64,000 nt of DNA from Photorhabdus thracensis. GTDB taxonomy: Bacteria > Pseudomonadota > Gammaproteobacteria > Enterobacterales > Enterobacteriaceae. Location of the stretch: positions 3,844,001-3,908,000 of the forward strand of contig NZ_CP011104.1 of assembly GCF_001010285.1 (NCBI RefSeq). Reading direction: 5' to 3'. Of the stretch, positions 8,814-29,420 are shown piece by piece. A model generated the notes under the pieces. That model did not search any database, had not been told where the DNA came from, and worked only from the letters and a program-made list of their open reading frames with translations. The stretch's first letter is position 1. Every line of letters starts with the position of its first letter. Position numbers and translations under genes: made by a program.

Positions 8814-10949
8814 ATGGCTAAAAATGACTTTAAAGCGTTTGCCACTGGTGAAAACGCGAATACATTATCGCAAGAAGAATATGAAAGCTTAGGTTTTATT
8901 GAAGAGGGATTTAAATCAGGAATAGCAAGGAGTGAACAGCTCAATAAAGTGTGGCGGCAATCCTCAATTATCGCTGCGGTGATTGGGAAATATATTGCAG
9001 AAAAAACGGGTGAGGATGTTATTGATGATGGAGATCTTGAGAAACTCGTCGCGCAATTGGACCTGGCGTTAAAACAAAAAATTACTGCGGAAATTCCGGA
9101 TGCTTTGCTTACCCGGAAAGGAATTTCGCAACTTAACAACGCGACAAATTCTGACAGAGAAGATCAGGCGGCAACGCCGAAAGCGGTGAACGATGTTAGA
9201 AAAATGGCTGAAGGCAAATTAAGTAGCGTTGCTGATGCTACGTTAAGCCAAAAGGGGATTGTACAGTTAAGCAGTGCTACTGATAGTGCGAATGAAACCT
9301 TAGCTGCGACTCCTAGAGCAGTTAAGGGCGCGTATGATTTTGCAAATACGGCAAATGTAGCGGCTAAAAATGCTCATGATGAAGCGAATAGGGCTACAGA
9401 TAATGCTAATAGTCGGTTGGCAAAAAATCAAAATGGTACAGATATCCCTAATAAGAGTGAGTTTATAAAAAACCTTGGTTTAGCGGAAACGGTGAATAAG
9501 GCCAATCATGCGGTGCCGAGTAGTCGGAAAGTGAACGGCAAGGTGTTGACCGGAGATATCAGTTTGAGTGCCGGGGATGTGGGGGCGTGTCGTGCTTATA
9601 GCGGCTCGATCAATACAGGCGGGGGCACATGGACTACTCAAGAGTTTATTGCATGGCTTAAGCAAAACGGGGCCTTTGATGTTCCATACTGGATGTGCAA
9701 AGGCTCATGGTCATATGCCGACAATCGTATAATCAACGATACAGGCTGCGGTAATATCTGTCTTGCGGGGGCTGTGGTTGAAGTCATGGGCGTAGAATCT
9801 GCAATGACTATCCGTGTTACAACACCGACGACAACAAGCGGAAACGGTATTGCAAGCGTACAATTTACTTATATTAATCATGGTGAAGGGTACTATCCGG
9901 GTTGGCGTAGGGACTATAACACCGCAAATAAACCTACTGTTGAGGATGTAGGAGCATGTCGGGCCTATAGCGGCTCGATCAATACCGGCGGTGGCACATG
10001 GACCACTAAAGAGTTTATTGTATGGCTTAAGCAAAACGGGGCCTTTGATGTTCCATACTGGATGTGCAAAGGCTCATGGTCATATGCCGACAATCGCATA
10101 ATCAACGATACGGGCTGCGGCAATATCTGTCTTGCGGGGGCTGTGGTTGAAGTCATGGGCGTAGAATCTGCAATGACTATCCGTGTTACAACACCGACGA
10201 CAACAAGCGGAAACGGTATCGCAAGCGTACAATTTACTTATATTAATCATGGTGAAGGGTACTATCCGGGTTGGCGTAGGGACTACAACACAAAAAATAA
10301 GCCTTCTGCTGAGGATGTAGGGGCTTTTCCTGGATTTATTTTTGTCAATAGTATCCCGACACGTAGTTATGTTGGGGCTTGGGGCGGATCCGGGAACGGG
10401 AGTTCGGGGTGGGTTAAAGGACTTAATATCGGTACGGCAGGTAGTGATGTAGGTCAACTATACATTGATCCCGATGGAAATCTTTATGCATATTTTTTAA
10501 ATAATAATGGCTTTACAAGAGGGGGAGCAGTCAATACCTACCCTGTGGGCTCACCTATCCCGTGGCCGCAACCAAATCCCCCATCAGGTTACCTTGCGTG
10601 CAACGGCCAAACATTTAATAAATCCACATATCCGCAATTAGCGGCGGCATACCCCAACGGCAGAGTACCCGATTTAAGAGGTGAATTTATCCGAGGATGG
10701 GATGATAACCGCGGTGTGGATAGTGGTCGTGGAGTGCTGTCTTACCAAGAGGGCCAAGCACCAGTATCTGCTATTGCCGGCTACTGGGATAATGATAACT
10801 GGAAAAACGGTAAGCACAGAGAAACTGGATTTTCCGCAGCAACAGGAACAGACAATGGTGGCTGGCATAACATTATTCAAGAATATGAAAATCAAAGAGA
10901 AACTCGTCCTCGCAACATCGCATTTAACTACATAGTGAGAGCCGCATAA
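8814..10949 (+). CDS. Tail fibre, currently expressed form
   Basis: The 711-residue fibre has three parts. Residues about 1-216 are the constant base, including two tail-fibre repeats (KGISQLNNATNSD… and KGIVQLSSATDSA…). A recombination site at codons 217-225 joins it to the tip. The tip holds the recurring VPSSRKVNGK…LSAGDVGA module, then two nearly identical 123-residue copies of a CRAYSGSINTGGGTWTT module, and a C-terminal collar domain (SPIPWPQPNPPSGYLACNGQ … PDLRGEFIRGWDDNRG … PRNIAFNYIVRAA). The collar recurs in two silent tips at 22 and 28 kb. The stop overlaps the tfa start. Ligand is unknown; surface glycans are likely. Confidence 0.9.
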   Translation: MAKNDFKAFATGENANTLSQEEYESLGFIEEGFKSGIARSEQLNKVWRQSSIIAAVIGKYIAEKTGEDVIDDGDLEKLVAQLDLALKQKITAEIPDALLTRKGISQLNNATNSDREDQAATPKAVNDVRKMAEGKLSSVADATLSQKGIVQLSSATDSANETLAATPRAVKGAYDFANTANVAAKNAHDEANRATDNANSRLAKNQNGTDIPNKSEFIKNLGLAETVNKANHAVPSSRKVNGKVLTGDISLSAGDVGACRAYSGSINTGGGTWTTQEFIAWLKQNGAFDVPYWMCKGSWSYADNRIINDTGCGNICLAGAVVEVMGVESAMTIRVTTPTTTSGNGIASVQFTYINHGEGYYPGWRRDYNTANKPTVEDVGACRAYSGSINTGGGTWTTKEFIVWLKQNGAFDVPYWMCKGSWSYADNRIINDTGCGNICLAGAVVEVMGVESAMTIRVTTPTTTSGNGIASVQFTYINHGEGYYPGWRRDYNTKNKPSAEDVGAFPGFIFVNSIPTRSYVGAWGGSGNGSSGWVKGLNIGTAGSDVGQLYIDPDGNLYAYFLNNNGFTRGGAVNTYPVGSPIPWPQPNPPSGYLACNGQTFNKSTYPQLAAAYPNGRVPDLRGEFIRGWDDNRGVDSGRGVLSYQEGQAPVSAIAGYWDNDNWKNGKHRETGFSAATGTDNGGWHNIIQEYENQRETRPRNIAFNYIVRAA
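9463..9488 (+). other. Invertase crossover-like site 1, inside the fibre gene
   Basis: A 26-bp site with two 12-bp arms around a central TT. The inner arms read AAACC-TT-GGTTT and the outer right arm ends GCGGAA. Length, near-palindromic AAACC/GGTTT core and asymmetric dinucleotide match the gix/cix/hix sites used by Gin, Cin and Hin. Close copies lead the other fibre tips at 12713, 21572 and 29395. The core TT sits in the same codon position (CTT or ATT before GGT) in all four, so recombination keeps the frame. Confidence 0.75.
9580..10317 (+). repeat. 369-bp tandem duplication inside the fibre gene
   Basis: Two head-to-tail copies of 369 bp (123 codons), the first about 9580-9948 and the second about 9949-10317. 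They differ by a handful of bases, mostly synonymous, such as a Q/K change in WTTQEF/WTTKEF and A/V in FIAW/FIVW. The period is a whole number of codons, so the fibre gains a second receptor-binding-like module without a frame change. The near identity suggests recent duplication or gene conversion. Confidence 0.9.
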
Positions 10950-11575
10950 TGACAGAGCAAAAGTATTCTTTAGAACATGAAACAGCCGTATTGGGTAAAG
11001 ACGGATTAGCCACTCAGGCCGGGTGGATAAAGGTTTATCACTCGAATCAGATAACAAGAGAATTCACGAGCTCTGATATCGAGTATGTGATGCTCGGTGT
11101 CAGTTTATCGGCGGGTGCTTATCCTGATGCTCCAGAGTTACCGAAATCTGATGACGAGGCTGTCTGCCGCAGCATGGACGGTAAATGTTGGGAAATCCTC
11201 CCAGACTATCGCGGAAAAATCGCTTACGATACGAAAACTCGTCAAAAACGTGAGATAACTGAAATCGGTGAGCTGCCCGATACGCTGACTTTCAAGAAAC
11301 CTGACACCGACTATGACAAATGGGACGGCAAAGAGTGGGTAGTTGATAAAGATCTCTTGAAATCCAGTCAGATTAATAATGCCAAGCAACAACAAGCAAC
11401 ACTGTTACGACAAGCGAATGAAACACTTTCGTTACTCCAAGACTCTGTTGATTTGGAAGTTGCTACTGAAGCAGAAAGAGCCGCTTTACTCGAATGGAAG
11501 AAATATCGGGTATTACTCACTCGTGTAGATACTTCACTGGCTCTTGATGTTACATGGCCTGAGATGCCGAAGTAA
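10949..11575 (+). CDS. Tail fibre assembly chaperone (Tfa), partner of the expressed fibre
   Basis: This 208-residue Tfa-family protein starts at an ATG overlapping the fibre stop (TAATG). N-terminal MTEQKYSLEHETAVLGKDGL and the C-terminal helical part ending LTRVDTSLALDVTWPEMPK are shared with the assembly genes at 22.5 and 27.5 kb. Tfa proteins help trimerise the fibre tip and may remain attached to it. Each silent tip carries its own copy, which fits tip-specific chaperoning. Confidence 0.85.
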   Translation: MTEQKYSLEHETAVLGKDGLATQAGWIKVYHSNQITREFTSSDIEYVMLGVSLSAGAYPDAPELPKSDDEAVCRSMDGKCWEILPDYRGKIAYDTKTRQKREITEIGELPDTLTFKKPDTDYDKWDGKEWVVDKDLLKSSQINNAKQQQATLLRQANETLSLLQDSVDLEVATEAERAALLEWKKYRVLLTRVDTSLALDVTWPEMPK

Positions 11576-11584
11576 AATATTCAG

Positions 11585-11606: not shown

Positions 11607-11960
11607 TCACTTCGGCACATCCGGCCATTGGATATCGGGTGCGGTAGTACAATCCACCCGATTGAGCAGCACCCGGTATTTACGCCATTCGGTTAATGCG
11701 AATTTTTCCGAGTTGGTGGCGATACTCAAATCGACTGCATCCTGGTAGATATCGATTTTTTCTGTGGCAGTCCTGAGTAGGTATTGTTTTTCATATTCCA
11801 CGTGTTGTTGTAACTGCTCCGGTGTGGGTGGTGGGTTTGCAATCGCCATAGCCTCAGCTTCTGTGACAAGGATTAAATCCGGTTTAATCCAATCGTTCTG
11901 AGAACCGTCTGACTCGTATGCATAAACCTGATTGTCTTTAGATTTGTAATATTTCATCAT
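11607..11960 (-). CDS. Tail fibre assembly protein, silent cassette B
   Basis: A 117-residue short-form Tfa protein ([20 protein letters not shown] … [14 protein letters not shown]). The C-terminal ending matches the long Tfa proteins, but the N-terminal half is a shorter, different type. Its start overlaps the end of the reverse-oriented fibre tip that it would serve. It would be transcribed only after inversion of the segment between sites 1 and 2. Confidence 0.8.
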
Positions 11961-12718
11961 TACCTCAGCTCAATCCAATTATTAATCACTACCCACTCAG
12001 ACGGTTGTCCCCAGCCACCATTAACACGATATGTTGCACCAGGAGGGACAATCGCACATAGAGACACAATTTCATCAACGCTTATCCAACGGTAAGCAAC
12101 CCGCAACCCGCTGACTGTAATATCGATACTGAACGGGCTTGATGCTCCTGTTCTGTTTGATTCAATGTAAACAATGATGGGTTTATCGCTGGAATTTGTG
12201 TACGTTGTTTTATTTCGGCGATTGGATATAACGTCAGTCCATTTCTGACCGACACCGAGCAACTGTTCAACCAACGCCATCGTGCCGGATTTTTTCCGTA
12301 TATCCACATAGTGCATTGTGTCATCTTTCTTATCCCTATACCGGATAGTCAGCATATTTTCGCTGTTATCAGGATTGGAGTTTAACGTGGTGTTGTAACC
12401 ACTCGGCTTTTTGAATTCAATACCAGACCAGTCATGCGTTGCATCAACATGCAGGTTGCCACAGGTGAAGGTTTCCTGTGAGGTTTTGTACGCGAATTTG
12501 GTATTGGACTCATCACGGGAATAGGCGCCAACAACTGCCGCTGAGGGGGGAAACGCCTCGCTGTACGCACGCGACCAGCCACCATGGTCAAAATGATCAT
12601 ACAGTTTGGTCGCCCCAATCCACCCTTTGGCTTCAATATCGTCGTCAGCATAAACTTTCCCTGTAATTTGTCCGCCTGTTTTCGGATAGGCATTTTTTGC
12701 CTGCTCTACTGTTCCCAC
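11960..12718 (-). CDS. Silent tail fibre tip, cassette B
   Basis: A 252-residue fibre tip without a proper start of its own; the frame is open through crossover site 2 (…[20 protein letters not shown]). It is unlike the other tips: it contains [20 protein letters not shown], as in lambdoid and P2 side-fibre tips, and ends in a compact beta domain ([19 protein letters not shown]) rather than the collar domain. Inversion between sites 1 and 2 would join it in frame to the constant base, giving a fibre near 475 residues. Confidence 0.8.
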
Positions 12719-12738
12719 TAAACCAATGTTTGTTGTAA
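12713..12738 (-). other. Invertase crossover-like site 2 (inverted)
   Basis: Read on the minus strand this matches site 3 through the left arm and core (ACAAACA-TT-GGTTTAG). The distal right arm reads GTGGGA instead of GCGGAA, the most divergent intact copy. It is inverted relative to site 1, so recombination with site 1 would invert 9.47-12.73 kb and switch the tip from A to B. Confidence 0.7.
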
Positions 12739-12838
12739 CCCGTTAACTGGCAGCATTCTTTGCCAAGGCAGCTGCTTAAAGCATTAAACGGGATTAAAAA
12801 TGGTAAAAATCGGACCTATCCGCGTATCAATAAATAAC
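12719..12838 (+). repeat. About 120-bp repeat flanking fibre cassette B
   Basis: The stretch starting at the crossover site and running outward (TAACCCGTTAACTGGCAGC… to …ATCCGCGTATCAATAAATAA) recurs almost unchanged at 29402-29521 in the same orientation and, inverted, at about 21480-21590. A worn copy lies near 15717-15780. It lies on the side of each site away from the tip, so it probably came along each time a cassette was duplicated. The rest of 12839-13181 shows no gene; it ends in the higBA promoter region. Confidence 0.8.
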
Positions 12839-13181
12839 CAAATTAACGACTTAAAGAGGAATGCATTAACCATGATGGAATTATGAACGCATTTTGGGTG
12901 ATAAATCAGCAAAAAATTAGCATTGTTCTTGTCTTACCAACTCAGAAACTTCATCAGGCATATCCCAAGCAAGACATTTTTCTCCAGGGGGGTTAGATTC
13001 TCTGTTAACACCATAACCTATGCCTTATTGGTTAGTCAGGATAATTAATAGCCTTGTTTTGTCTCTTATTGCCCCAAAATTGATTGTGTTAACGCTGATT
13101 GATGAAGTTCACCTATGAGTTAAATTAACCCTTGATTTAAATGTACCTGCGGGTTAATGTCTTTACCCAAAGGGGGTATGT

Positions 13182-13502
13182 ATGTTTGAACTGATATTTC
13201 ACGAAGAAGCTAACAACGAGATTCAATCGCTAGACGAAGTTATGCGAGGTAAAACGGTACTGGCGATTGATAAGCTGGAAGCCAGAGGGAATACGCTGCG
13301 GTACCCGGCAACAGAGCCGTTGCGCGACGGGTTATTCCAGCTAAGAGTTGGCAATAAAGACATTACCCGGACCATTTTTGCTTATGCCACTGGCCGGCGA
13401 ATTTACATACTCCGTACATTTATCAAGAAAACACCAAAAACCCCAGCGTCAGAAATAAAACTGGCATTGCAAAGATTAGAGGAGATGACAAATGAAAGTT
13501 AA
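13182..13502 (+). CDS. higB: HigB/RelE-type toxin
   Basis: The 106-residue protein starts MFELIFHEEANNEIQSLDEV behind AAAGGGGG. The pattern (LEARGNTLRYPATEPLRDGL, LRVGNKDITRTIFAYATGRR, FIKKTPKTPASEIKLALQRL) is that of phage-derived Gp49-like HigB toxins, ribosome-dependent mRNA interferases of the RelE fold. It overlaps the antitoxin start by 11 bases in the toxin-first order usual for HigBA. It lies between cassette B and the mqsRA pair. Confidence 0.85.
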   Translation: MFELIFHEEANNEIQSLDEVMRGKTVLAIDKLEARGNTLRYPATEPLRDGLFQLRVGNKDITRTIFAYATGRRIYILRTFIKKTPKTPASEIKLALQRLEEMTNES

Positions 13503-13776
13503 AGGCATTCCTTGGTCAGAAGTCAGGGCGCAAGCCCTTTCATCCCCTGGAGCTCAGGCCGCTTATGAAGCAGCCAAACAGGAAGAGGAACTCTACGAGC
13601 TGATACAGAGCATGAAAAACAGGGCGGGCATTAACAGTTCACAGTTAGCCGAAAGACTGGGAATTACCCCACCGGCAGTAGCTAAGGTTGAAAAAAACCC
13701 GATGAAAGCCAGTGTTGCGACACTTAAACGCTATGCGGCGGCGTGTGGCGTCAACCTCAAAATTAGTATAGTTTAA
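13492..13776 (+). CDS. higA: HigA antitoxin, XRE family
   Basis: The 94-residue protein carries a helix-turn-helix near residues 46-90 (NSSQLAERLGITPPAVAKVE, KASVATLKRYAAACGVNLKI). It would bind HigB and repress the pair's promoter. The 3' end is duplicated downstream as decayed copies at 13829-13918 and 15205-15520, showing past tandem duplication or recombination at this locus. Confidence 0.85.
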   Translation: MKVKGIPWSEVRAQALSSPGAQAAYEAAKQEEELYELIQSMKNRAGINSSQLAERLGITPPAVAKVEKNPMKASVATLKRYAAACGVNLKISIV

Positions 13777-13828
13777 CTGCTGCCCACCTCTTGGACATTA
13801 ACTAATCGATGAACCGCTCGTATTTCTT

Positions 13829-13918
13829 ATGGAAAACAATATTAACAAGGCCAGCATAGATACCCTGGCACGTTATGCCCAAGCTTGAGGTGTCGAAAAA
13901 CTCCAGATAACACTTTAA
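13829..13918 (+). pseudogene. higA 3' remnant
   Basis: An ATG opens MENNINKASIDTLARYAQA, then an in-frame TGA at 13886-13888, then GVEKLQITL and a TAA. It matches the C-terminal half of the XRE antitoxin (KASVATLKRYAAACGVNLKI), so it is a broken antitoxin end. The same remnant recurs at 15431-15520. Confidence 0.7.
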
Positions 13919-13931
13919 TTTTAGCCACATC

Positions 13932-13972
13932 CCCCGGTATCTTTATCGTGAAGTTTGATTAAGATACCGGGG
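13932..13972. other. 12-bp perfect inverted repeat
   Basis: CCCCGGTATCTT and AAGATACCGGGG face each other across 17 bases. No T run follows, so it is either a weak terminator for higBA or part of an old element end. A degraded version lies at about 15535-15575 beside the second higA remnant. The following stretch 13973-14260 shows no gene; near 14092-14110 it resembles the end motif of IS200/IS605-type elements (CATCCTCCCCTTCC), but no transposase is present. Confidence 0.5.
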
Positions 13973-14266
13973 CATTAGGATTAACGTATTACGTGATATT
14001 GATGCTCCCCGCCCTACCGAGGCTGCCGCAAAAGTTAACCTTTATCAGCTAAGATCCGGGTTAATATTCCAAACGAGACCCTTGTATTGACATCCTCCCC
14101 TTCCTAAAGCATGGTGAGGCCGTTGTTGGTGATGGATTCTCATTTTCAGTTATTGTGGGTTCATGGCAATGGAATGCAAGTTGGCGTTGATAAATGTAGG
14201 TTGTCACACTTAGTGGGCAGATAATAGTTTGAAACGGTTTCGGAAATCAAGATACGGTTAATCTGT

Positions 14267-14302
14267 TATAATATCTATTGCACTAGAATAACCAAGTAGG
14301 TT
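14267..14302 (+). promoter_or_regulatory. mqsRA promoter and MqsA operator-like palindrome
   Basis: A TATAAT box at 14267-14272 is followed at 14290-14302 by AACC-AAGTA-GGTT, a palindrome of the kind bound by MqsA in the E. coli mqsRA promoter. It ends 12 bases before the mqsR start. The arrangement implies autorepression by the antitoxin. No good -35 box was found. Confidence 0.6.
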
Positions 14303-14314
14303 AATATTTGTTTT

Positions 14315-14611
14315 ATGGAAAAACGAACACCACATTGTAAGTTATCAGTTGTCAAAACTTTGATCGAAGCCAGAAAAGTACGTACCACATATACAGCGCT
14401 AGCTGGTGCGAATGAGCTGGGACTTGAGTTCTCCGACATGCTAGCCATAGTGATGGCGCTCACGCCAGCGGATTTCTACAAGAGTATGACGACTTACGCT
14501 GATCATACGGTCTGGCAAGACGTGTACCGGCCAAACACACATGTGGGTGATGTGTATCTGAAGCTGACGGTCATTGATGACGTGCTGATCGTGTCCTTCA
14601 AGGAGCTATAA
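14315..14611 (+). CDS. mqsR: MqsR toxin, mRNA interferase
   Basis: The 98-residue protein begins MEKRTPHCKLSVVKTLIEA and contains DFYKSMTTYADHTVWQDVYR and KLTVIDDVLIVSFKEL, closely matching E. coli MqsR across its length. MqsR is a RelE-fold endoribonuclease that cuts mRNA at GCU sites. Full length, no damage seen. It is followed 2 bases later by its antitoxin. Confidence 0.93.
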   Translation: MEKRTPHCKLSVVKTLIEARKVRTTYTALAGANELGLEFSDMLAIVMALTPADFYKSMTTYADHTVWQDVYRPNTHVGDVYLKLTVIDDVLIVSFKEL

Positions 14612-14613
14612 AC

Positions 14614-15015
14614 ATGAAATGTCCTTTTTGCAGCACAGCGGAACTTATCCACGATACGCGCGATCTACCCTATACATACAAGGGCGAAACCACAATCATT
14701 TCTGCTGTAACGGGCGACTTCTGCCCTGCCTGCTCCGAATCTGTTTTGGACGCTGCGGAATCAGAGCGTGTTATGTGCGAAATGCGCGCATTTTCGAAGC
14801 AGGTCAACGCAGCTATTGTCGATCCTAGCTTCATTGCCAGTGTGCGTAAAAAACTCGCACTTGACCAGCGAGAAGCCTCTGAAATCTTCGGCGGTGGTAT
14901 CAATGCTTTCTCGCGCTACGAGAATGGCAAGACTAAACCGTCGCTAGCTTTAGTGAAGCTGCTTAAGGTGTTAGATCGTCACCCCGATTTGCTCTCTGAA
15001 ATCAGAACGGCGTAA
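14614..15015 (+). CDS. mqsA: MqsA antitoxin
   Basis: The 133-residue protein has an N-terminal zinc-binding domain with the Cys pairs MKCPFC and GDFCPAC, and a C-terminal XRE helix-turn-helix (SEIFGGGINAFSRYENGKTK), the two-domain layout of MqsA. The N-terminus binds MqsR and the C-terminus binds DNA. Full length. Confidence 0.93.
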   Translation: MKCPFCSTAELIHDTRDLPYTYKGETTIISAVTGDFCPACSESVLDAAESERVMCEMRAFSKQVNAAIVDPSFIASVRKKLALDQREASEIFGGGINAFSRYENGKTKPSLALVKLLKVLDRHPDLLSEIRTA

Positions 15016-15071
15016 TTCCGTCTTGCACCACTGGAAATTGTGCCAGAGCACTATGAAACACTCTCAACCTT

Positions 15072-15090
15072 GCGGGGATTAAATCCCCGC
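15072..15090 (+). terminator. Hairpin after mqsRA
   Basis: GCGGGGATT-A-AATCCCCGC is a perfect palindrome about 57 bp after the mqsA stop. There is no T run directly after it, so it may end the mqsRA transcript inefficiently or be the operator of the truncated gene that starts at 15108. Confidence 0.45.
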
Positions 15091-15107
15091 CGACTTTGGA
15101 GGTCATC

Positions 15108-15263
15108 ATGTTTTTCTCAGTAGGTGTTGAGTTGCCGAAAGACGAAAATACAGCGTATGGTCTGGTTATTCCTGCGCTGTGTACCGAAGATTATGGCTGT
15201 TTCTCAACACCAAAAACCCCAGTGTCAGAAATCAGGGCGCAAGCCCTTTCATCACCGCAGTAG
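15108..15263 (+). pseudogene. HicB-like antitoxin N-terminus fused to higBA debris
   Basis: A 51-codon frame begins MFFSVGVELPKDENTAYGLV and IPALCTEDYGCFS, the start of HicB-type antitoxins, behind a GGAGG site. It then runs directly into TPKTPVSEI and RAQALSSP, which are HigB C-terminal and HigA N-terminal residues of the pair at 13.2 kb. It is therefore a chimera made by deletion, not a functional antitoxin. Confidence 0.65.
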
Positions 15264-15520
15264 CTAAGGTTGAAAAAAACCGATGAGAACCAGCATCGCG
15301 ACACTTGAACGCTACGCGGGGGCGTGTGGCGTCAACCTCAAAATTAGTATAGCTTAACTGTTGCCTGTCTTTTGGATATTAAACTAAAAGGTCGGGTATT
15401 TTACTAATCAATGAACCCTTCGTGTTTTTTATGGAAAACAATATTAACAAGGCCAGTAAGATACCTTGCACGTTATGCCCGAGCTTGCGGCGTCGAAAAT
15501 CCTCAGATAACACTTTAAAC
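15205..15520 (+). pseudogene. Second decayed copy of the higBA 3' region
   Basis: The bases match 13435-13915 in patches: the HigB end (CACCAAAAACCCCAG), then an internal deletion, the HigA end (GGCGTCAACCTCAAAATTAG) and finally the short ATGGAAAACAATATTAAC remnant at 15431. Frames are broken in several places. Between here and 16020 there is no gene, only AT-rich leader sequence with an 8-bp inverted repeat (ATACTACT/AGTAGTAT) at 15807-15826. Confidence 0.7.
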
Positions 15521-16020
15521 TTTATGTCAGATCACCCGATATCTTTATCGTGAAATTTGAGTAAGATACTGGGCGAAAAGTGAGAAAACTTACCCGATTA
15601 CTATCAATTGCAGGGGATCAATTAGGCGTTGATGAGTTAAATTGCGGGATAACCATCCCCTGTTTAACAATGTCTTCTATAACTTATTAACTCACAACGA
15701 TCCTTGTAAAGTCGGCTTTTCAAAATATTAAATGGGATTAAATACGGTAAAAATTAGCTATATCCGTACATCTAAGAATTATATTGCTTTATTTCCTTAT
15801 GTTGGAATACTACTATACAGTAGTATCTCTACATCATCCAATTTGTCCTATGTTAGGAGTTTTCCAATTAAAAATATCAGATTACTCTTATTCACATGAC
15901 GAAAAATACATAGTATAGTATCGAAAATTTGGCTAGATGAATAAATTGAATCCCAGTTTTTAGCCTTTTGAAATCCGAACTATCTTTTACCACCATTTGA
16001 TATCCTATTGATATATAAAT

Positions 16021-17571
16021 ATGAAATTTATAAAAAACCACCTAATCAAGCTATTGCCAGTTGTTGCACTCTTCATTTTTTGTCTTTTAGCTCATATCGC
16101 TATGGGTTATCGTTTAAAAATAGGGTACGTATTCGCTGTATTCTTTATTTTCCTATTGCTAAACAAGGTCACTGCCGTTTATAGAGTCCTTCTTGTCGTT
16201 CTTGGCATAACAACTCTCATTTATGCCCCTGTAGGGCTGACATATGGATCACCAAACTTCAACTCAATTCTTTCATTATTCTATACAAATAAACAAGAAG
16301 CCAGTGAGTTTATCTCTTCTATTCCAATTGAACATTATCTTTTTAGTGCGCTTATCTTGATATTTTGTTTTTTATCGCTAAAGGTAAGCATTAATTTATA
16401 TAAAAAGGTTAATGTCTTTCTATTTTCTTTTGCATTAATCACGATAATACACCACCCTTTAAAATCCTTTATACAGGGAAAAGAGTTTAATATCTTTGAC
16501 TCAGGTCTTCCTGAAATCAGAGTAGTCAAAGATGTTACTATCAACTTTATAAGGGTAAAAAGCGAATACAAAAAAATGCAGGAAATATTGAGAGAGAAAG
16601 ATACATGGGGAACAGTATCAGCACAGTCCAAATATAACACTTACGTCGTTGTTATTGGGGAAAGTGTACGTAAAGATTTTATGAATGCGTATGGATTCCC
16701 GATACACAATACGCCTTTTATGAGCACTGCGAATGGGACACTTTTTACAAATTATATCTCAGCAGGTCCATCAACCCAGATATCATTGGCAAACTCACTA
16801 GCAATGGTCAAAGATGGTAAAGAGATTTTAAGTAATAATATTGTTACACTGGCGAAAAAAGCTGGCTTTTATACTTATTGGATATCAAATCAAGGTTCGA
16901 TGGGGTTATTTGATACTCCGGTTGCCAGTATGGGAGCAAGGGCAGATTCTCCATTGTTTATTAAAAAAGGTGAATCCAGTTCTGGTCTTAACAGAAGTAT
17001 GCCTGATACAAATGTAATACCCATTGTGAAAAAAGTCCTGGAAGATAAGAAAGAGAAAAAATTAATTGTTATCCATTTAATGGGATCACACTCTCCTGCT
17101 TGTACCCGAACAAATTATGAATACAAAGTGTTTTTTAAGTCAGAGCAGGTTTCTTGCTATATACAGAGTATTGAAAATACTGATAACTTACTGTCAATAA
17201 TTACTGATGAAGTACAGAAAAATGAGAAGAATTGGTCTTTGATGTATTTTGCTGATCATGGAGTGTCTTTCTTTGAGAGAGATACTAAGAAAATGAGACT
17301 TGCTCATAACGATAAATACAAGCAGAACTATCAGGTTCCTATGTTTATTACTTCTTACGACGATACATCACGGAAATTTATTAATTCTCAACGAAGTTCA
17401 ATGAATTTTTTAACGCTATTTTCAGAATGGACAGGTATTAAAGAGCCTACAATATCTGAAAATTGTAAAATGTTGTCTAATGAAATATGTGAAAACCAAG
17501 ATGATGTTTTGAATTTTAGTAATAACATCATGAAATACAGTTCATTACCAGAAGATAAAATTCCCAAATGA
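16021..17571 (+). CDS. Phosphoethanolamine transferase, EptA-like
   Basis: The 516-residue inner-membrane enzyme has four or five N-terminal membrane segments (residues about 8-150) and a periplasmic sulfatase-fold domain. Metal and nucleophile residues line up with the EptA family: E214 in VVVIGESVRKDF, T252 in AGPSTQISL, H352 and H357 in IHLMGSHSP, and D412-H413 in MYFADHGVSF. It would transfer phosphoethanolamine from phosphatidylethanolamine to lipid A or core sugars. Its N-terminal quarter and leader recur as fragments at 23.7 and 27.0 kb. The AT-rich composition and the site between fibre cassettes suggest phage cargo. The exact acceptor cannot be told from sequence. Confidence 0.88.
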   Translation: MKFIKNHLIKLLPVVALFIFCLLAHIAMGYRLKIGYVFAVFFIFLLLNKVTAVYRVLLVVLGITTLIYAPVGLTYGSPNFNSILSLFYTNKQEASEFISSIPIEHYLFSALILIFCFLSLKVSINLYKKVNVFLFSFALITIIHHPLKSFIQGKEFNIFDSGLPEIRVVKDVTINFIRVKSEYKKMQEILREKDTWGTVSAQSKYNTYVVVIGESVRKDFMNAYGFPIHNTPFMSTANGTLFTNYISAGPSTQISLANSLAMVKDGKEILSNNIVTLAKKAGFYTYWISNQGSMGLFDTPVASMGARADSPLFIKKGESSSGLNRSMPDTNVIPIVKKVLEDKKEKKLIVIHLMGSHSPACTRTNYEYKVFFKSEQVSCYIQSIENTDNLLSIITDEVQKNEKNWSLMYFADHGVSFFERDTKKMRLAHNDKYKQNYQVPMFITSYDDTSRKFINSQRSSMNFLTLFSEWTGIKEPTISENCKMLSNEICENQDDVLNFSNNIMKYSSLPEDKIPK

Positions 17572-21597: not shown

Positions 21598-22533
21598 ACG
21601 GTGAATTTGGCTAAGGGGGCGTATCCCGGTTTGAGATCCGTTAATGAGATCCCTTCTCTTGGATATAACGGCGCGTTCCAAGGTAGAGAATCTATTAATT
21701 ATGCAAAAGGAGTCAGTATTGGCGATAGCGACTACGGACAGATTTGGGTTAACTCATCGGGTCGGCTATTTGCTCAATTTTCCAATAATAATGGCGCAAA
21801 ACAGGGAGGTGAATGTGTTTATATGGACGATATTACATCCATTGAGCAAAAAGCTAATAATGCCGTACCGAGCAGCCGGAAAGTGAACGGCAAGGCGTTA
21901 ACCAGGGATATCAGTTTGAGTGCGGGGGATGTGGGGGCTTTTAATGGATTTATTTTTGTCAACAGTATCCCGACACGTAGTTATGTTGGGGCCTGGGGCG
22001 GGTCCGGGAACGGAAGTTCAGGGTGGGTTAAAGGACTTAATATCGGTACGGCGGGTAGTGATGTCGGTCAACTATACATTGATCCCGATGGAAATCTTTA
22101 TGCATATTTTTTAAATAATCATGACTTTACAAGAGGGGGGGCAGTCAATACTCATCCTGTGGGCTCACCCATCCCGTGGCCGTTACCTAATGCTCCTACT
22201 GGTTATTTCACATGCAACGGTCAGTCATTTAATAAATCCATATATCCACAATTGGCCGTAGCTTACCCATCAGGAAAACTGCCTGATTTGCGTGGGGAAT
22301 TTATCCGTGGTTGGGATGATGGAAGAGGTGTTGATAGTGGTCGCGGGATTTTGTCTTGGCAGGCTGATGAATTTAAATCACATTCACATAGCTATCAAAC
22401 AATAAATGAACCGGGGACGGGAAGAGCATCGGGGGCCGGAGCAGGGTTTCAAACATTTGAAACAAATAAGACTGGTGGCAACGAAACCCGCCCTCGCAAT
22501 ATCGCATTTAACTACATAGTGAGAGCAGCATAA
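21589..22533 (+). CDS. Silent tail fibre tip, cassette C
   Basis: A 314-residue fibre tip in frame with crossover site 3 (…NIGLSETVNLAKGAYPGLRS). The TTG at 21589 is unlikely to be a real start. Content: a unique module with WVNSSGRLFAQFSNNNGAKQ, then VPSSRKVNGKALTRDISLS, a segment almost identical to the expressed fibre (FIFVNSIPTRSYVGAWGGSG), and the collar domain ending PRNIAFNYIVRAA. It has no promoter or constant base of its own, so it should be silent in this orientation. Confidence 0.8.
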   Translation: MSETVNLAKGAYPGLRSVNEIPSLGYNGAFQGRESINYAKGVSIGDSDYGQIWVNSSGRLFAQFSNNNGAKQGGECVYMDDITSIEQKANNAVPSSRKVNGKALTRDISLSAGDVGAFNGFIFVNSIPTRSYVGAWGGSGNGSSGWVKGLNIGTAGSDVGQLYIDPDGNLYAYFLNNHDFTRGGAVNTHPVGSPIPWPLPNAPTGYFTCNGQSFNKSIYPQLAVAYPSGKLPDLRGEFIRGWDDGRGVDSGRGILSWQADEFKSHSHSYQTINEPGTGRASGAGAGFQTFETNKTGGNETRPRNIAFNYIVRAA

Positions 22534-23691: not shown

Positions 23692-23994
23692 ATGCAGCCT
23701 AAAAAGATCATGATAATCAATCAGTTACTATCTATTTCGCTATTTATTTTTTGTCTTTTAGATCATATAACTTTGGGGTGCCGCTTAAAAATAGGTTATG
23801 TACTTACTATATTCCCTATTTTCCTGTCGCTAAATAATACTTATAAGATTTTTAGAGTTCTTCTTATCGCTCTTAGTATAGTAGCTCTCATTTACATTTC
23901 TACTGGCCTGGTGTATAGCCTGCCGAACTTTAATTCTACTTTCTATTCATATCGGGAATTTTCTCGATATCAATCAGCACTAGGTGTAATCTAA
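23692..23994 (+). pseudogene. N-terminal fragment of an EptA-like transferase
   Basis: This 100-residue frame matches residues about 1-80 of the transferase at 16.0 kb (LFIFCLLDHITLGCRLKIGY versus LFIFCLLAHIAMGYRLKIGY; then LPNFNS). It covers only the first membrane segments, then diverges and stops exactly where a methyltransferase gene begins (TAATG). The catalytic domain is absent, so it cannot act as a transferase. It may simply have kept the promoter and leader for the inserted gene. Confidence 0.75.
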
Positions 23995-24689
23995 TGAAAA
24001 ATATTCCACGCTCTACCTTAAACGATATCATTGAATGGGATGTTAATAGTTGGTCTAAATGTTTAGGTTTTTGGCTTTCAAAGGGAAAGGTTAATTTAGA
24101 AAATGCTCAAGCTTTGGAGATTGGCAGTCGCAATGGTGGTTTGTCATTATGGGCATCACTAAATGGTGCTAGAGTAATTTGCTCAGATCTTGGCGGCCCG
24201 AATAAAAAAGCTTACCAAAAACATAGAGATTACAATCTTAGTGATTATATTACATATAAAAACATAAATGCACTAAACATTCCATATGAAAATGAACTGG
24301 ATATTGTACTTTCTAAATCAGTTATCGGCGGTATAGGGCGCAATAATAATATTGAAAATCAGAAAATAGCCATATCAGAAATATACAAATCTTTAAAGAA
24401 AGGAGGAGAATACTGGTTTGCTGAAAACCTATTAGCATCTCCTGCACATAAAATATTAAGATCTAAGTTTATCCAATGGGGAAATGAATGGAAATATATA
24501 ACAATAAACGATATGAATGAATATTTATATCAATTCTCAAGTGTTGAATATACTACCGTAGGGTTTGTTTCCTGTTTTGGAAGAACAGAAAAACAAAGAA
24601 GAGTATTAAATTTTTTTGATAAATTTATATTCTCAGCAATAATTCCTGAAAAATGGAATTATATTATGATTGGAGTGGCTAAAAAATAG
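23994..24689 (+). CDS. SAM-dependent methyltransferase, class I
   Basis: The 231-residue protein has motif I as ALEIGSRNGGLSLWASLNGA (residues about 40-59), an acidic loop CSDLGG, and KSLKKGGEYWFAENLL, the usual layout of class I methyltransferases acting on small molecules or sugars. Its start overlaps the stop of the EptA-like fragment. AT-rich, like the glycosyltransferases. Substrate unknown; the neighbourhood suggests a surface glycan. Confidence 0.75.
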   Translation: MKNIPRSTLNDIIEWDVNSWSKCLGFWLSKGKVNLENAQALEIGSRNGGLSLWASLNGARVICSDLGGPNKKAYQKHRDYNLSDYITYKNINALNIPYENELDIVLSKSVIGGIGRNNNIENQKIAISEIYKSLKKGGEYWFAENLLASPAHKILRSKFIQWGNEWKYITINDMNEYLYQFSSVEYTTVGFVSCFGRTEKQRRVLNFFDKFIFSAIIPEKWNYIMIGVAKK

Positions 24690-24775
24690 AGTTTTTTTCA
24701 TATAAAGCTTGAGGTTTGAAATGAGGGAAAACATCCCTCATTTATTTTATTCTGGCAATTCCGACCATTAGATAA

Positions 24776-24925
24776 ATAGCTTTCCATAATACCGATACAC
24801 CTATGCCTTTTATTTTCTTTCTGAACAACATTGGCTCTGTAGCCTATTTCACTGATTCTACGGACCGCTTGGATGAAAAGGCTGTATGTCTTGGTACACA
24901 AGGGCTAGTTGGAAGTGGAGCATAA
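24776..24925 (+). pseudogene. Possible C-terminal fragment of an unknown protein
   Basis: After an in-frame stop, a frame reads AFHNTDTPMPFIFFLNNIGS and DSTDRLDEKAVCLGTQGLVG, ending at a TAA at 24923. It looks protein-like but has no start, and I cannot name a family. It lies just before the wrecked fibre cassette D and may be a remnant of another fibre or hydrolase. Confidence 0.3.
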
Positions 24926-24967
24926 TTATGAAAACTTATTTATCATAAACCTAATAAATATCAAAAC

Positions 24968-24993
24968 TATTCAATAGCATTGATTTGATGGAA
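24968..24993 (+). other. Degenerate crossover site of cassette D
   Basis: Aligned to site 3, this 26-bp stretch keeps AGCATTG-TTTG-TGGAA but has lost the GG of the core (TTGATTTG). The bases after it (GGGGGCTTATCCCGGTTTGAGGC) continue the match to cassette C. It is probably no longer a recombination substrate. Confidence 0.55.
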
Positions 24994-25345
24994 ACAGTGG
25001 AATCGGCAAGGGGGCTTATCCCGGTTTGAGGCCCGTTGCTGAACTTACATCAGAAGCAGTGCCAGCTGAAATAAATACTACAGTGGGATGGGTTTTTGAC
25101 GGTAAAAAATCATCCCGCGCATTTACACGTTGGAAGAGCAACGACAACAGATAGAGGGCCAAAAATCAGAGAAGATGATTGCCGCAAACTTAATTATTCA
25201 GCCTTTGCAAGATGCCATTGATTTAGGGATAGCCACCAACGAGGAAAAAACGTTATTACTTTCATGGAAAAGGTATAGAGTGTTACTGAGTCGCATTGAT
25301 ACCTCATTAGTATCAGAAATTAACTGGCCTGAAAAACCAGCGTGA
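24994..25345 (+). pseudogene. Wrecked fibre cassette D: tip start joined to tfa end
   Basis: The left part matches the start of cassette C (GGCTTATCCCGGTTTGAGGC). Near 25100 it passes into assembly-protein sequence, and from 25130 a 71-codon frame reads as a Tfa C-terminus (LIIQPLQDAIDLGIATNEEK … SLVSEINWPEKPA). The middle of the fibre tip and the N-terminal part of the Tfa are deleted. Confidence 0.75.
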
Positions 25346-25352
25346 AATAATA

Positions 25353-25373
25353 ACGGCCTGCTCTCCAGGCCGT
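25353..25373. terminator. Hairpin between cassette D and the reverse glycosyltransferase
   Basis: ACGGCCTG-CTCTC-CAGGCCGT is an 8-bp stem between two convergent genes. No strong T run follows, though the flanks are AT-rich. Likely a bidirectional terminator. Confidence 0.55.
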
Positions 25374-25385
25374 AAATCTAAAGAT

Positions 25386-26483
25386 TTAGGATTTATAAAC
25401 TGAACTATAAATATTTATCGTTTCTGAGACCATTTTTCTCACATCAAACTCTTTAATCGCTTTTTCTCTGGCCTTTTCAGACAGCCTTTCTAACTCTTGA
25501 GATGATAAACCAGCAATCAGTTTTAAAATCTCATATACTGATGCTTCATTTCCTGCTTTTGTGATCCAGCCATTAACACCATGATCAATGTTTTCTGGTA
25601 ATCCCCCAAAATCACTGACAATAATAGGTAGACTACAAGCCATCATCTCTCTGCAAGCAAAACTGATAGTTTCACAATTGGTAGATAAAACAAATCCTAC
25701 AGAAGCATTCTTCATGTAATTAATGATCCTTTTGTCATCATTGATATAACCAGTGAATTCAACATCAACATGATAGAAAGGAATACCGACTAATTTATCG
25801 ATATCTTTTTGATAAGGAATACGCCCAATGATCTTTATACGAAATTTATCAGATAATGCTTTATCTTTTGCCAGGCATCTTATCAACAAATACCAACCTT
25901 TGTGCCCAGCTGTCCCAGCAGAAGAGATAAGCGTTATCTTTCCTTTTTCTGTAATTATACGTTCAATCTTCCATTTGTCAGTATTAACACCATTTTTTAT
26001 GGTAATAGCTTGTTTGTCAGAGACAAAAGATGAGCATTGGTTTCTGGTGGCGTCACTAACGAAGATGATTTTTTCATTGAATTTTTTCAGCCTGACTCTG
26101 GATAACCAAGACACAAAATAATGATTATGTTTCGTATAGATTATCTTACTTTTCAAGCCAAAAAGAACCTTTGCTAGGATAGCGATCTTATTATCAGAAG
26201 TTCCATTAGTATGAATAACGTCAATTTTTTGTTTTTTTGCAATACGTGACAAGGTTTTACAGGTTGTTACGAGTTGTTTAACTTTATTGAGTTTGCAGAA
26301 AAAATAAAGTGGAACAACATTGTTGAATCCAGAGCTGACAAGTTCTTTGTACAATCTACTTTCTGGTGGGCAAGCAATAAATAGTTTCCCTTTGTTATAA
26401 TCAAAATATTTAACTATACTCATTATATATGTGGTATGACCACCACCATTTCCTGTATGAAAATTTGTAATCAAAATATTCAT
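25386..26483 (-). CDS. Glycosyltransferase family 4
   Basis: The 365-residue protein begins MNILITNFHTGNGGGHTTYI, with the glycine-rich loop of GT-B enzymes, and has the family 4 acceptor and donor signature NCETISFACREMMACSLPII then VSDFGGLPENIDHG (residues about 270-305), including the EX7E-type glutamates. It would transfer a sugar during LPS or capsule assembly at the cytoplasmic face. Intact, and AT-rich. Confidence 0.85.
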   Translation of the reverse strand: MNILITNFHTGNGGGHTTYIMSIVKYFDYNKGKLFIACPPESRLYKELVSSGFNNVVPLYFFCKLNKVKQLVTTCKTLSRIAKKQKIDVIHTNGTSDNKIAILAKVLFGLKSKIIYTKHNHYFVSWLSRVRLKKFNEKIIFVSDATRNQCSSFVSDKQAITIKNGVNTDKWKIERIITEKGKITLISSAGTAGHKGWYLLIRCLAKDKALSDKFRIKIIGRIPYQKDIDKLVGIPFYHVDVEFTGYINDDKRIINYMKNASVGFVLSTNCETISFACREMMACSLPIIVSDFGGLPENIDHGVNGWITKAGNEASVYEILKLIAGLSSQELERLSEKAREKAIKEFDVRKMVSETINIYSSVYKS

Positions 26484-27453: not shown

Positions 27454-27463
27454 TTACTTGTCA

Positions 27464-28090
27464 TCATTCTGGCATTTTGGGCCATTCAATATCAGGCGCT
27501 AGTGAAGTATCAACACGGCTCAGTAATACCAGATACTTTTTCCAATTCAACAGCTGCACTTTTTCTTCTTCTGAGGCCAATTCAGTCTCGACAGCATATT
27601 GTAATAAAGTAGCGGCCTCATTAGCTTGTTGGCAAAGTGTGATTCGTTGCTGTTCAGTCTGTTCAATTTGGCTGGCTTTTAGAGCGTTTTTGTCAGTGAC
27701 CCACTCTTTACCGGTCCACTTGTCGAAATGAGTTGCGGGTTGTTTGAAGGTCAAGGTTTCTGGTAATTCACCCAGCTCAGTAACTTCTTGTTGTGCGAGG
27801 GTTTGCGTGTTGTAAACACTTTTTCCGCGATAGTCTGGGACGGTTTCCCAACACTTTCCATCTTCACTGCTACAAACAGCCAAGTCATCAGACTTCGGCA
27901 GCTCTGGCGCATCGGGATAAGCACCCGCTGATAGACTGACGCCGAGCATCAGATATTCAATATCAGTAATTGTAAATTCCCTTGTTGATTGATTTGTGTG
28001 ATAAACCTTTATCCAGCCTGCTTTCTTAGCTAATCCGTCTTTATCCAATACGGCTACTTCGGGTTCTAAAGAGTATTTTTGTTCTGTCAT
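27464..28090 (-). CDS. Tail fibre assembly protein, cassette E
   Basis: An intact 208-residue Tfa-family protein (MTEQKYSLEPEVAVLDKDGL … SLAPDIEWPKMPE), the reverse-strand counterpart of the genes at 10.9 and 22.5 kb. Its start overlaps the stop of the tip gene that precedes it on the minus strand. Confidence 0.85.
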   Translation of the reverse strand: MTEQKYSLEPEVAVLDKDGLAKKAGWIKVYHTNQSTREFTITDIEYLMLGVSLSAGAYPDAPELPKSDDLAVCSSEDGKCWETVPDYRGKSVYNTQTLAQQEVTELGELPETLTFKQPATHFDKWTGKEWVTDKNALKASQIEQTEQQRITLCQQANEAATLLQYAVETELASEEEKVQLLNWKKYLVLLSRVDTSLAPDIEWPKMPE

Positions 28091-29391
28091 TATGCTGCTC
28101 TCACTATGTAGTTAAAAGCGATGTTACGGGGGCGGGTTTCATTTCCACCGGTCGGTGATGTCGTGCTGTCGATATACAGGAAACTATTATTATCAGTATC
28201 TGTAGCATTTGAGCCGACATTGTTGTTATACCCAGCTGGAGTTGCCTCCTTATTGCTAGCCCCGTGGAGACTGTTTACATTTTCGATATAATACCGGTCA
28301 CGATAGCCGTGTTCATGACTTGCCAATAAATCGTTTTCTGCCGATAACAGTTTGCGACCCGGATTGACACCACGTCCTCCATCCCAACCACGAATAAACT
28401 CACCACGCAAATCAGGCAGTGCTCCTGATGGGTAAGCTGCCGCTAATTTAGGGTATATGGATTTATTAAATGCTTGACCGTTGCACGCAAGGTAACCTGA
28501 TGGGGGATTTGGTTGCGGCCACGGGATGGGTGAACCAACTGGATAGATATCATCTTCTTTTCCAGATAATAAATAAGAGTAAACTTTCCCCTTAACCGCC
28601 CCTTTGGGGACTTCTGATAACTCTGCTATCTTCAATAACTGATTAACAGTTGCATTATCTGACACAAAAGCATTTAAAATTATGTTTTGAGCAAAAGGAC
28701 CAATGAATATGTAAATATCATAGTTATCACCAGATGTATTAACAGTTGCTAAGTCAGTAGGTGCTTGAGTATTAACTGTGTACATCACTGCATTGATTCC
28801 GGCTGGCGCTCCATTCCCGGTTCTTAAAACTATATTGGTGATAGCGCATTGCTCAAAACTCCCAACGTTGTACCCTGAACCGCCAACAATATTAATATTG
28901 ATAGTGCTCATCACTTTCATTGTTACTTCGGCAATTTTTACCCAAGCCGATGTCTGTACCGTCAGACTATTAATATATTGTTTACCTGACAAAGCCCCCA
29001 CATCCTCAGCAGTAGGCTTATTCAATGTATTATATTGAATAGTCCAAGGTAGGTATTGCTCCGGCCCACCCCATGTCTGTCGCGTCGCAATATCGCCGTG
29101 ATGCGATATGTACCGCTGCAAAATGACTCCGTTGGCGTTTTGTACATCAAGAATTCCATAGCCGTACATGTTGCCGTCGCGAGGAAAATCAGATACAGAC
29201 GATGGGTTGGGTACAGCTACTCGATAAAAACCAGTTGATAAATAGTTCTTAAATTTTCCGCCGTTGGCAATTTCGCCGAGTTGATTTGAGCTTATCGCCC
29301 CCACATCCCCGGCACTCAAACTGATATCTCCGGTCAACGCCTTACCGTTTACTTTCCGACTACTCGGTACCGCATTATTCGCCAAATTCAC
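28090..29391 (-). CDS. Silent tail fibre tip, cassette E
   Basis: A 433-residue tip, open through crossover site 4 (…NIGLAETVNLANNAVPSSRK). It carries the VPSSRKVNGKALTGDISLS module, a unique region with YRVAVPNPSSVSDFPRDGNM, a second unique beta region (TNIVLRTGNGAPAGINAVMY), and the collar domain with SHEHGYRDRYY before the common end PRNIAFNYIVRAA. Inversion between sites 1 and 4 (about 20 kb) would place it on the fibre base and turn the cargo around as well. The ATG at 29391 is unlikely to be used. Confidence 0.8.
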   Translation of the reverse strand: MNLANNAVPSSRKVNGKALTGDISLSAGDVGAISSNQLGEIANGGKFKNYLSTGFYRVAVPNPSSVSDFPRDGNMYGYGILDVQNANGVILQRYISHHGDIATRQTWGGPEQYLPWTIQYNTLNKPTAEDVGALSGKQYINSLTVQTSAWVKIAEVTMKVMSTININIVGGSGYNVGSFEQCAITNIVLRTGNGAPAGINAVMYTVNTQAPTDLATVNTSGDNYDIYIFIGPFAQNIILNAFVSDNATVNQLLKIAELSEVPKGAVKGKVYSYLLSGKEDDIYPVGSPIPWPQPNPPSGYLACNGQAFNKSIYPKLAAAYPSGALPDLRGEFIRGWDGGRGVNPGRKLLSAENDLLASHEHGYRDRYYIENVNSLHGASNKEATPAGYNNNVGSNATDTDNNSFLYIDSTTSPTGGNETRPRNIAFNYIVRAA

Positions 29392-29394
29392 CGT

Positions 29395-29420
29395 TTCCGC
29401 TAAACCAATGTTTGTTGTAA
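29395..29420 (-). other. Invertase crossover-like site 4 (inverted)
   Basis: On the minus strand it combines the left arm of site 3 (ACAAACA) with the right arm of site 1 (GGTTTAGCGGAA) around a central TT. This mixed form is what past recombination between the sites would leave. It is inverted relative to sites 1 and 3. Confidence 0.75.

What the first reader, a model, noticed from the sequence alone, without database searches (positions are those of the whole stretch)
9463..29420. Multi-cassette tail-fibre switch with at least four Gin/Hin-like crossover sites spread over 20 kb
Four 26-bp sites with AAACC/AAACA-TT-GGTTT cores sit at 9463 (+), 12713 (-), 21572 (+) and 29395 (-), each at the junction between a shared fibre base or silent tip and the same codon position. 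Three silent tips with their own tfa genes are in frame with them, so any inversion between opposite sites yields a full fibre. Classical Gin/Cin loci flip one segment of a few kb with two tips; here there is one expressed tip, three silent tips and one wreck, with unrelated cargo inside the invertible DNA. Sequence facts are direct; switching is inferred.
Basis: partly seen in the sequence, partly recalled or inferred. Interest (0 to 1): 0.75.

Follow-up and report, generated by a model that had tools for sequence, protein, structure and literature searches.

The report
Tailocin fibre switch with borrowed recombinase
A Photorhabdus chromosome carries genes for a phage-tail-like particle whose target-recognising tip could be exchanged by flipping DNA between four matching sites, but the enzyme that would flip it is not at the locus, appears to be supplied from a second such locus in related bacteria, and seems to be lost in this strain.

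Summary
The four sites are real (4 found, 0 in 100 shuffles), alternate +,-,+,- and share one codon phase. The locus is a Photorhabdus chromosomal contractile-tail cluster whose fibre base is found in 12 of 12 genus genomes searched. It is best read as a Gin/Hin-type tail-fibre inversion array. In the draft genome matching P. caribbeanensis HG29 the assembly breaks exactly at the orthologous sites: a free 5,855-bp segment bounded by inverted sites overlaps base and flank by exactly 127 nt, the mark expected when both orientations are present in one culture. In two sister strains homologues of window tips occupy other sites (3 of 7 tips compared). New here: no full-length invertase was found near this locus in any of the 12 genomes. 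A Gin-like invertase of one family is present in the 11 others, at the P2-type photorhabdicin locus in the four read, and missing in the window genome. Silent sites abut a decayed stub of the invertase gene. So this array is probably moved in trans elsewhere and probably frozen here. Inversion of tailocin fibres without a local invertase is already published for Xenorhabdus (PMC13280938): a variant of a known kind.

The parts
38..8811 (+). Contractile-tail genes: sheath (part), a virion structural protein (tube by position), tail assembly chaperone, tape measure, Dit-like protein, baseplate hub and wedge proteins, a tail protein before the fibre
   Evidence: PHROGs and Pfam. PHROGs files two of them (797-1243, 8200-8811) under 'head and packaging' as structural proteins. 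Tail terminator, sheath start and antiterminator Q lie just upstream in L110; no head gene recognised by eye among the ORFs of at least 100 aa there
8814..9476 (+). Conserved fibre base (N-terminal part of the expressed fibre)
   Evidence: 12 of 12 genus genomes carry it, best match 76-100% DNA identity
9463..9490 (+). Crossover site S1 (core AAACC-TT-GGTTT)
9477..10949 (+). Expressed tip 1 (Collar domain)
   Evidence: homologues at S4 and S2 of two sister strains
10949..11575 (+). tfa 1, fibre assembly protein (Caudo_TAP)
11607..11960 (-). tfa 2, short (117 aa; profile positions 56-131 only)
11960..12724 (-). Silent tip 2 (252 aa, no Collar match)
12711..12738 (-). Crossover site S2
12800..12925 (+). 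Decayed stub of an invertase gene (first ~42 codons, 3 stops)
   Evidence: (window 12800-12922, 51% identity, E 0.02)
13182..20489 (.). Cargo between S2 and S3: Gp49/HTH pair, MqsR/MqsA pair, sulfatase-fold protein (PF00884; 'phosphoethanolamine-transferase-like' is from recall), IS1595-type transposase-domain protein (160 aa), two family-2 glycosyltransferases
21385..21510 (-). Decayed invertase stub beside S3 (3 stops)
   Evidence: (window 21403-21510, E 0.38: weak alone)
21572..21599 (+). Crossover site S3
21586..22533 (+). Silent tip 3 (Collar domain)
   Evidence: homologue at S1 in L120
22533..23159 (+). tfa 3 (Caudo_TAP)
23994..26483 (.). Cargo between S3 and S4: methyltransferase (+) and group-1 glycosyltransferase (-), with the wreck between them
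24968..25346 (+). Wreck: degenerate fifth site (7 mismatches), tip start and tfa tail
   Evidence: (D15); tfa tail by reading
27464..28090 (-). tfa 4 (Caudo_TAP)
28090..29406 (-). Silent tip 4 (Collar domain)
29393..29420 (-). Crossover site S4
29482..29607 (+). Decayed invertase stub beside S4 (2 stops); keeps two Fis-like boxes 48 bp apart
   Evidence: not listed by the protein search
29733..29866 (+). Possible C-terminal invertase remnant (HTH_7-like)
   Evidence: E 0.03, below the Pfam cut-off: weak

Best explanation
The locus is the tail-fibre end of a chromosomal Photorhabdus tailocin. A Gin/Hin-type serine invertase exchanges DNA at the central TT of inverted 26-28-bp sites. The conserved fibre base keeps its left half-site and each tip with its tfa gene carries the right half-site, so inversions bring a different tip in frame with the base. 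Four alternating sites allow 16 arrangements and four possible expressed tips (computed). No full-length invertase was found near this locus in 12 genus genomes. In the other 11 a Gin-like invertase of one family is present, at the P2-type photorhabdicin locus in the four genomes whose surroundings were read, and I infer that it acts in trans on this array. The window strain has lost that gene with most of photorhabdicin, so its array is probably frozen with tip 1 expressed. Shown: sites, frames, tip positions in sister strains, assembly breaks at the sites in two related drafts, absence of a Gin-type gene from the one-contig window genome. Inferred: both orientations in a culture, action in trans, frozen state, tailocin function.
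For: Sites and phase. Permuted tips: over 450 nt from the core, tip 1 of the window matches S4 of strain K (84.9%) and S2 of strain T (86.5%); tip 3 matches S1 of strain K over 363 nt (86.8%). Both strains are 94-96% identical to the window upstream. HG29 assembly: suffix(C17)=prefix(C70)=127 nt and suffix(C35)=prefix(rc C70)=127 nt; C70 starts and ends with AAAACCTTGGTTT in inverted orientation, and the overlap starts exactly where base and flank contexts become identical. P. tasmaniensis: 127 nt from the start of the expressed tip's site also end a second contig, behind a silent-type flank. Near-identical strains differ beyond the site: L033 against L136, 99.3% over 10,721 bp. The HG29 genome's only PF00239 match that spans the domain is this invertase, on a contig that also ends at the edges of two sites (by reading).
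Against: No reads were examined; the assembly argument is indirect. Matched tips are only 85-87% identical to the window while upstream DNA is 94-96%, so exchange between strains may explain part of the permutation. Four of the seven sister-strain tips compared (K_S2, K_S3, T_S1, T_S3) have no full-length match in the window. Of nine strain pairs at least 99% identical upstream, six keep the same sequence after the site (five of these are 100% identical upstream and may be one strain sequenced twice), one differs cleanly, one differs but has a run of N at the site, and one has no site by my pattern. Action in trans rests on elimination.
Confidence: 0.75

Rival explanations
1. Tip exchange is by RecA homologous recombination between strains and between inverted repeats, not by site-specific inversion; the sites are conserved coding sequence (FIKNLGL...ETV).
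For: Matches with 2 mismatches at genome 508254 and 533588 have no oppositely oriented match nearby in the list. Tip starts share about 117 bp. Genus-wide homologous exchange of fibres is published for Pectobacterium (PMC13195805, abstract and passages seen).
Against: In HG29 the two left contexts share only AAAACC before the core while the two tips differ first at base 23 of 127, so the junctions confine the exchange to the core region. Silent sites keep the site and an adjoining decayed flank across species.
Confidence: 0.15
2. A switch still active in this strain through another recombinase, for example the 203-aa one at genome position 4543610.
For: That protein is 49% identical to the photorhabdicin invertase over residues 3-179, its best PDB matches are Gin, and PHROGs files it and the three other recombinases as DNA invertase.
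Against: Its match to Gin covers residues 1-158 only. It lies about 690 kb away, and genes of its kind were seen in 3 of 12 genomes.
Confidence: 0.1
3. Fully dead relic: the sites are leftovers everywhere in the genus.
For: The invertase stubs are decayed: 15 of 15 window-type stubs that could be translated have stops.
Against: Assembly breaks at the sites in two drafts; different tips beyond the site in near-identical strains.
Confidence: 0.07

Closest known systems
Xenorhabdus xenorhabdicin locus xnp1/xbp1 (PMC13280938; sections 15, 17 and 18 read, other passages by find)
   Same: Tailocin fibre locus with extra fibre tips, segments inverted between sister strains, no invertase in the locus, glycosyltransferase genes there; the authors suggest recombinases encoded elsewhere and LPS modification as self-resistance
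   Different: Another tail cluster and genus. In the parts I read the trans-acting gene is not identified, and neither invertase stubs at the sites nor loss of the invertase is described.
Photorhabdus R-type pyocin/photorhabdicin, plu0008-plu0034 (PMC2717986; passages seen)
   Same: Invertible DNA with alternative fibre genes was already noted there; here three genomes show the P2-type cluster beside a GlmS-like gene with Gin-like invertase and AAACC-TT-GGTTT sites (P2-type genes by Pfam in one). That this cluster is photorhabdicin is inferred from its place and content.
   Different: P2-type locus with its own invertase; the window locus is a separate tail cluster without one
Carotovoricin of Pectobacterium (PMC13195805 abstract and passages; Nguyen 2001 seen only as cited)
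   Same: Fibre inversion in a tailocin; the invertase ein is present in 172 of 365 clusters
   Different: ein, where present, is a local gene; no trans supply proposed in the passages seen
Mu G segment/Gin and P1 C segment/Cin (NC_000929, NC_005856)
   Same: Tip+tfa pairs facing each other between inverted sites; gin starts 67 nt from the G boundary; the Cin enhancer is annotated at nt 19-90 of cin
   Different: Two sites, one segment, local intact invertase
Min cluster of p15B (recalled; no primary paper opened)
   Same: More than two crossover sites and several fibre tips (recall)
   Different: Plasmid/phage element with a local invertase (recall)

Membership tests
Gin/Hin/Cin (DNA invertase) switch | Inverted 26-bp sites with AAACC-NN-GGTTT core and equal central dinucleotide | tested here: met
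   TT at all four; the three silent sites have AAACA in the left half. The core consensus is from recall and the Mu sequence
Gin/Hin/Cin (DNA invertase) switch | Cognate serine invertase gene at the locus | tested here: not met
   No PF00239 match in the window; none near the fibre base in 12 of 12 genomes as far as their contigs reach; only stubs
Gin/Hin/Cin (DNA invertase) switch | Fis-bound recombinational enhancer | tested here: inconclusive
   Fis-like pair at 48 bp in the S4 stub (1 of 400 shuffles reaches its score); S2 and S3 pairs, at 49 bp, are not above chance (255 and 239 of 400); Fis consensus from recall
Gin/Hin/Cin (DNA invertase) switch | Both orientations found | tested here: inconclusive
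   Inferred from contig overlaps in two related drafts; not tested in the window strain
Tailocin (R-type phage-tail-like bacteriocin) | Contractile tail genes without head genes at a conserved chromosomal place | tested here: met
   downstream flank collinear in L027 and L111. Absence of head genes upstream judged by eye; PHROGs files two window proteins under 'head and packaging' as structural proteins
Tailocin (R-type phage-tail-like bacteriocin) | Particle production and killing | not testable with these tools
   needs bench work
Shufflon (Rci, tyrosine recombinase) | sfx repeats and rci recombinase | not tested
   Site type is Gin-like; no search for rci was made

The most novel reading that the evidence does not exclude
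One invertase, encoded in one tailocin locus, runs the fibre switches of two different tailocins in the same cell. The second locus has lost the enzyme but kept, beside its silent crossover sites, the 5' stub of the dead invertase gene because that stub is the Fis-bound enhancer needed in cis. Loss of the first tailocin then freezes the second, as in this strain.
Probability: 0.35. Interest if true: 0.7.

Novelty: new variant of a known kind. Interest (0 to 1): 0.52.

Why it matters
Fibre tips decide which neighbours a tailocin kills. A switch whose enzyme sits in another weapon's locus would couple the targeting of two weapons and would explain how tailocin loci without an invertase, as reported for Xenorhabdus, can still invert. 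It also names a concrete gene to delete and a concrete cis element to test.

Tried and rejected
Chance: rejected by shuffles. A loose core pattern alone is near chance (46 found, 37.5 expected, 12 of 100 shuffles as many), so the flanks are needed to recognise the sites. The alignment break of P. khanii L024 exactly at the core first looked like a breakpoint; it is a run of N in that record and was dropped as breakpoint evidence. Five of 22 close IMG/VR base loci (L118-L139, 72-100% identity; L119, L123, L124, L126, L131) end 1 to 112 nt past the core, 16 run on for at least 1,088 nt and one has no site by my pattern: suggestive only, since record ends may be trimmed. Partner contigs were looked for among held loci and, for L124 alone, in IMG/VR; none was found. 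Fis enhancer: only the S4 pair passes shuffles. The C-terminal remnant at 29733-29866 is weak (E 0.03; no NCBIfam match). NCBIfam gave no match over its cut-off for any of the recombinases, the photorhabdicin invertase included. No structure prediction was made. The species of the window was not established; its genome length matches my recall of P. thracensis DSM 15199, unverified.
Full report
Observation. The four sites exist as described. Pattern TTAYAAMAAACMTTGGTTTRBNGGRAAC matches four places in the window with up to 3 mismatches, all with none, against 0 in 100 shuffles. A 19-bp core pattern has four exact matches in the 5.15-Mb genome, all here (18 with up to 2 mismatches, reversed control 9). 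All four sites have TT as central dinucleotide and the same codon phase. S1-S2 is a 3.25-kb segment built like the Mu G segment (tip-tfa facing tfa-tip; Mu annotation). S3-S4 is a second such segment of 7.8 kb. Between them lie 8.9 kb of cargo. Inverted repeats of 125 to 228 nt lie at the sites (I3, I6, I7).

What the locus is. The base occurs in 12 of 12 genus genomes searched, the window's own included, and the best named matches are Photorhabdus species. Upstream genes encode a contractile tail preceded by a tail terminator and antiterminator Q; further upstream come GyrA- and Rcs-like genes (named by reading, recall), and I recognised no head gene among the listed ORFs. PHROGs files two of the window's tail-cluster proteins under 'head and packaging' as structural proteins. 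In 12 of 12 named loci the upstream DNA is collinear (84-96%). In 11 the similarity to the window ends between 9472 and 9592, at the site or the short shared tip start; one of these ends in N (L024) and one at a contig end (L026). In L035 it ends at 9259, before the site, and no base site was found. I call it a tailocin locus; particle production is untested.

Relatives. In strain K (L120 and L246, two records of one IMG genome number, their adjacency inferred) and strain T (L121, L243 and L206, pieces of one contig, order checked) the sites are again four and alternate +,-,+,-. I compared 450 nt from each core for 11 sites: 4 of the window, 4 of K and 3 of T; T's fourth site was not included. 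Tip 1 of the window matches K_S4 and T_S2 full length, and tip 3 matches K_S1 over 363 nt; K_S2, K_S3, T_S1 and T_S3 have no full-length match in the window, and window tips 2 and 4 none at these sites. A homologue of tip 4 ends the HG29 segment (by reading). Tip identities (85-87% to the window) are lower than upstream identity (94-96%), so exchange between strains is not excluded. Nine pairs are at least 99% identical upstream: L033/L136 have different tips beyond the site; L024/L120 share no tip match, but L024 has a run of N at the site; L025/L122 have the same tip; L028/L130, L029/L134, L034/L138, L132/L133 and L118/window are 100% identical with the same sequence after the site and may be duplicates; L035/L139 had no site by my pattern.

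Assembly evidence. In G004 (its base contig has the length of the HG29 record) the fibre base contig C17, a free 5,855-bp contig C70 and the right flank contig C35 meet by overlaps of exactly 127 nt. C70 begins and ends with AAAACCTTGGTTT in inverted orientation and contains tip-tfa, a group-1 glycosyltransferase and tfa-tip. The base before the overlap is A in one context and T in the other, with no further common suffix; the two 127-mers differ first at base 23. A 127-mer graph of a single-orientation genome has no reason to branch there; one of a mixed culture does. That the assembler used k=127 is inferred from the overlap. No other contig carries the C17 end 127-mer exactly. In most of the other named loci the base contig runs through the site. 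This is inference from assemblies, not reads.

The invertase. PF00239 finds 5 places in the window genome, none in the window. A search with the photorhabdicin invertase finds the four distant recombinases (36-49%) and short remnants: at the photorhabdicin remnant, at genome 1944135, and beside S2 and S3. In 11 of 11 other genus genomes a Gin-like gene of one family with an open frame of 191-195 aa is present. Its surroundings were read in four: G002, G006 and G007, beside a GlmS-like gene, and G004. In G006 the neighbours match P2-type Phage_base_V, gp25/W, Baseplate_J, Tail_P2_I, sheath and FII tube. In G000 that cluster is reduced to tip pieces between asd- and glmS-like genes (named by reading). 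No PF00239 match lies near the window-type base in any of the 12 (searches compared), though several base contigs are short. In G004 the only match spanning the domain is this gene; two fragments are on other contigs.

Stubs. The DNA outside the silent sites aligns over about 200 nt with the region from site to codon ~42 of the intact invertase gene, start codon 67-69 nt from the core. 18 window-type flanks and 6 flanks of photorhabdicin type were chosen from the matches and aligned; they are not independent, and some come from one contig. Of the 18, 15 could be translated and all 15 have stops in the first 42 codons; the other 3 had no start by my pattern. All 6 photorhabdicin-type stubs have stops; the 5 intact Photorhabdus genes have none. 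In P1 the Cin enhancer is annotated at nucleotides 19-90 of cin, and the hin enhancer lies about 100 bp from a hix site (PMC3798978, passages seen). The stubs cover that place. Among the best conserved 10-nt blocks are the site (0.95), the start region (0.96) and the first Fis-like box (0.96); the start region is no Fis box, so recent common descent can also explain the conservation. The second box is intact at 48 bp in the S4 stub but degraded at S2 and S3. An enhancer role is possible, not shown.

Cargo. tblastn of window cargo against the downstream part (up to 10 kb) of the 12 named loci: L026 was left out, holding only about 80 bp there. Of the other 11, eight (L024, L028, L029, L030, L031, L032, L034, L035) carry a match of at least 200 aa to the PF00884 protein, a glycosyltransferase or the methyltransferase; L025, L027 and L033 do not. 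The Xenorhabdus authors propose LPS modification as self-resistance (PMC13280938). I regard that as the likely role here; untested.

Literature. Searches were made in the open library only. PMC13280938 already reports inversion of fibre segments in a tailocin locus without an invertase and suggests recombinases elsewhere; PMC2717986 already notes invertible fibre DNA at the R-type locus of Photorhabdus. In these listings and the passages opened I saw no report on the window-type locus, on invertase stubs beside silent sites, or on loss of the trans-acting gene; most subscription papers are not in the library.

Verdict. Observation confirmed. Mechanism: Gin-type fibre inversion array (probable), enzyme supplied in trans (likely), frozen in this strain (likely). 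New variant of a known kind.

Noticed in passing
G000:C1:1901543-1904777 (L115): The photorhabdicin cluster of the window genome is reduced to fibre-tip pieces between asd- and glmS-like genes; one edge of the match to P. khanii (L106 position 13907) falls in a crossover-site core, as if a deletion had used the site.
   Followed up: partly
L107 (G007:C1:15000-34000) and L108 (G002): In photorhabdicin the piece between sites that would invert carries the invertase, baseplate genes and fibre base, with tips outside on both sides; four sites are seen in each.
   Followed up: partly
L122 position 4449: A strain 99.7% identical to P. tasmaniensis upstream has one extra A just after the core, which would shift the tip out of frame; may be an assembly error at a mixed site.
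   Followed up: no
window 9575-10321: Tip 1 holds a tandem duplication with a period of 369 nt (about 95% identical).
   Followed up: no
window 13182-15015 and 29903-30497: A Gp49/HTH pair, an MqsR/MqsA pair and an HI1420/Gp49-type pair lie beside the crossover sites S2 and S4.
   Followed up: no
L119 (IMG/VR 2585428140_000014), L224, L232, L237, L238: These fibre-type sites have TC instead of TT as the central dinucleotide, which would keep them from recombining with TT sites if the usual matching rule (recall) holds.
   Followed up: no
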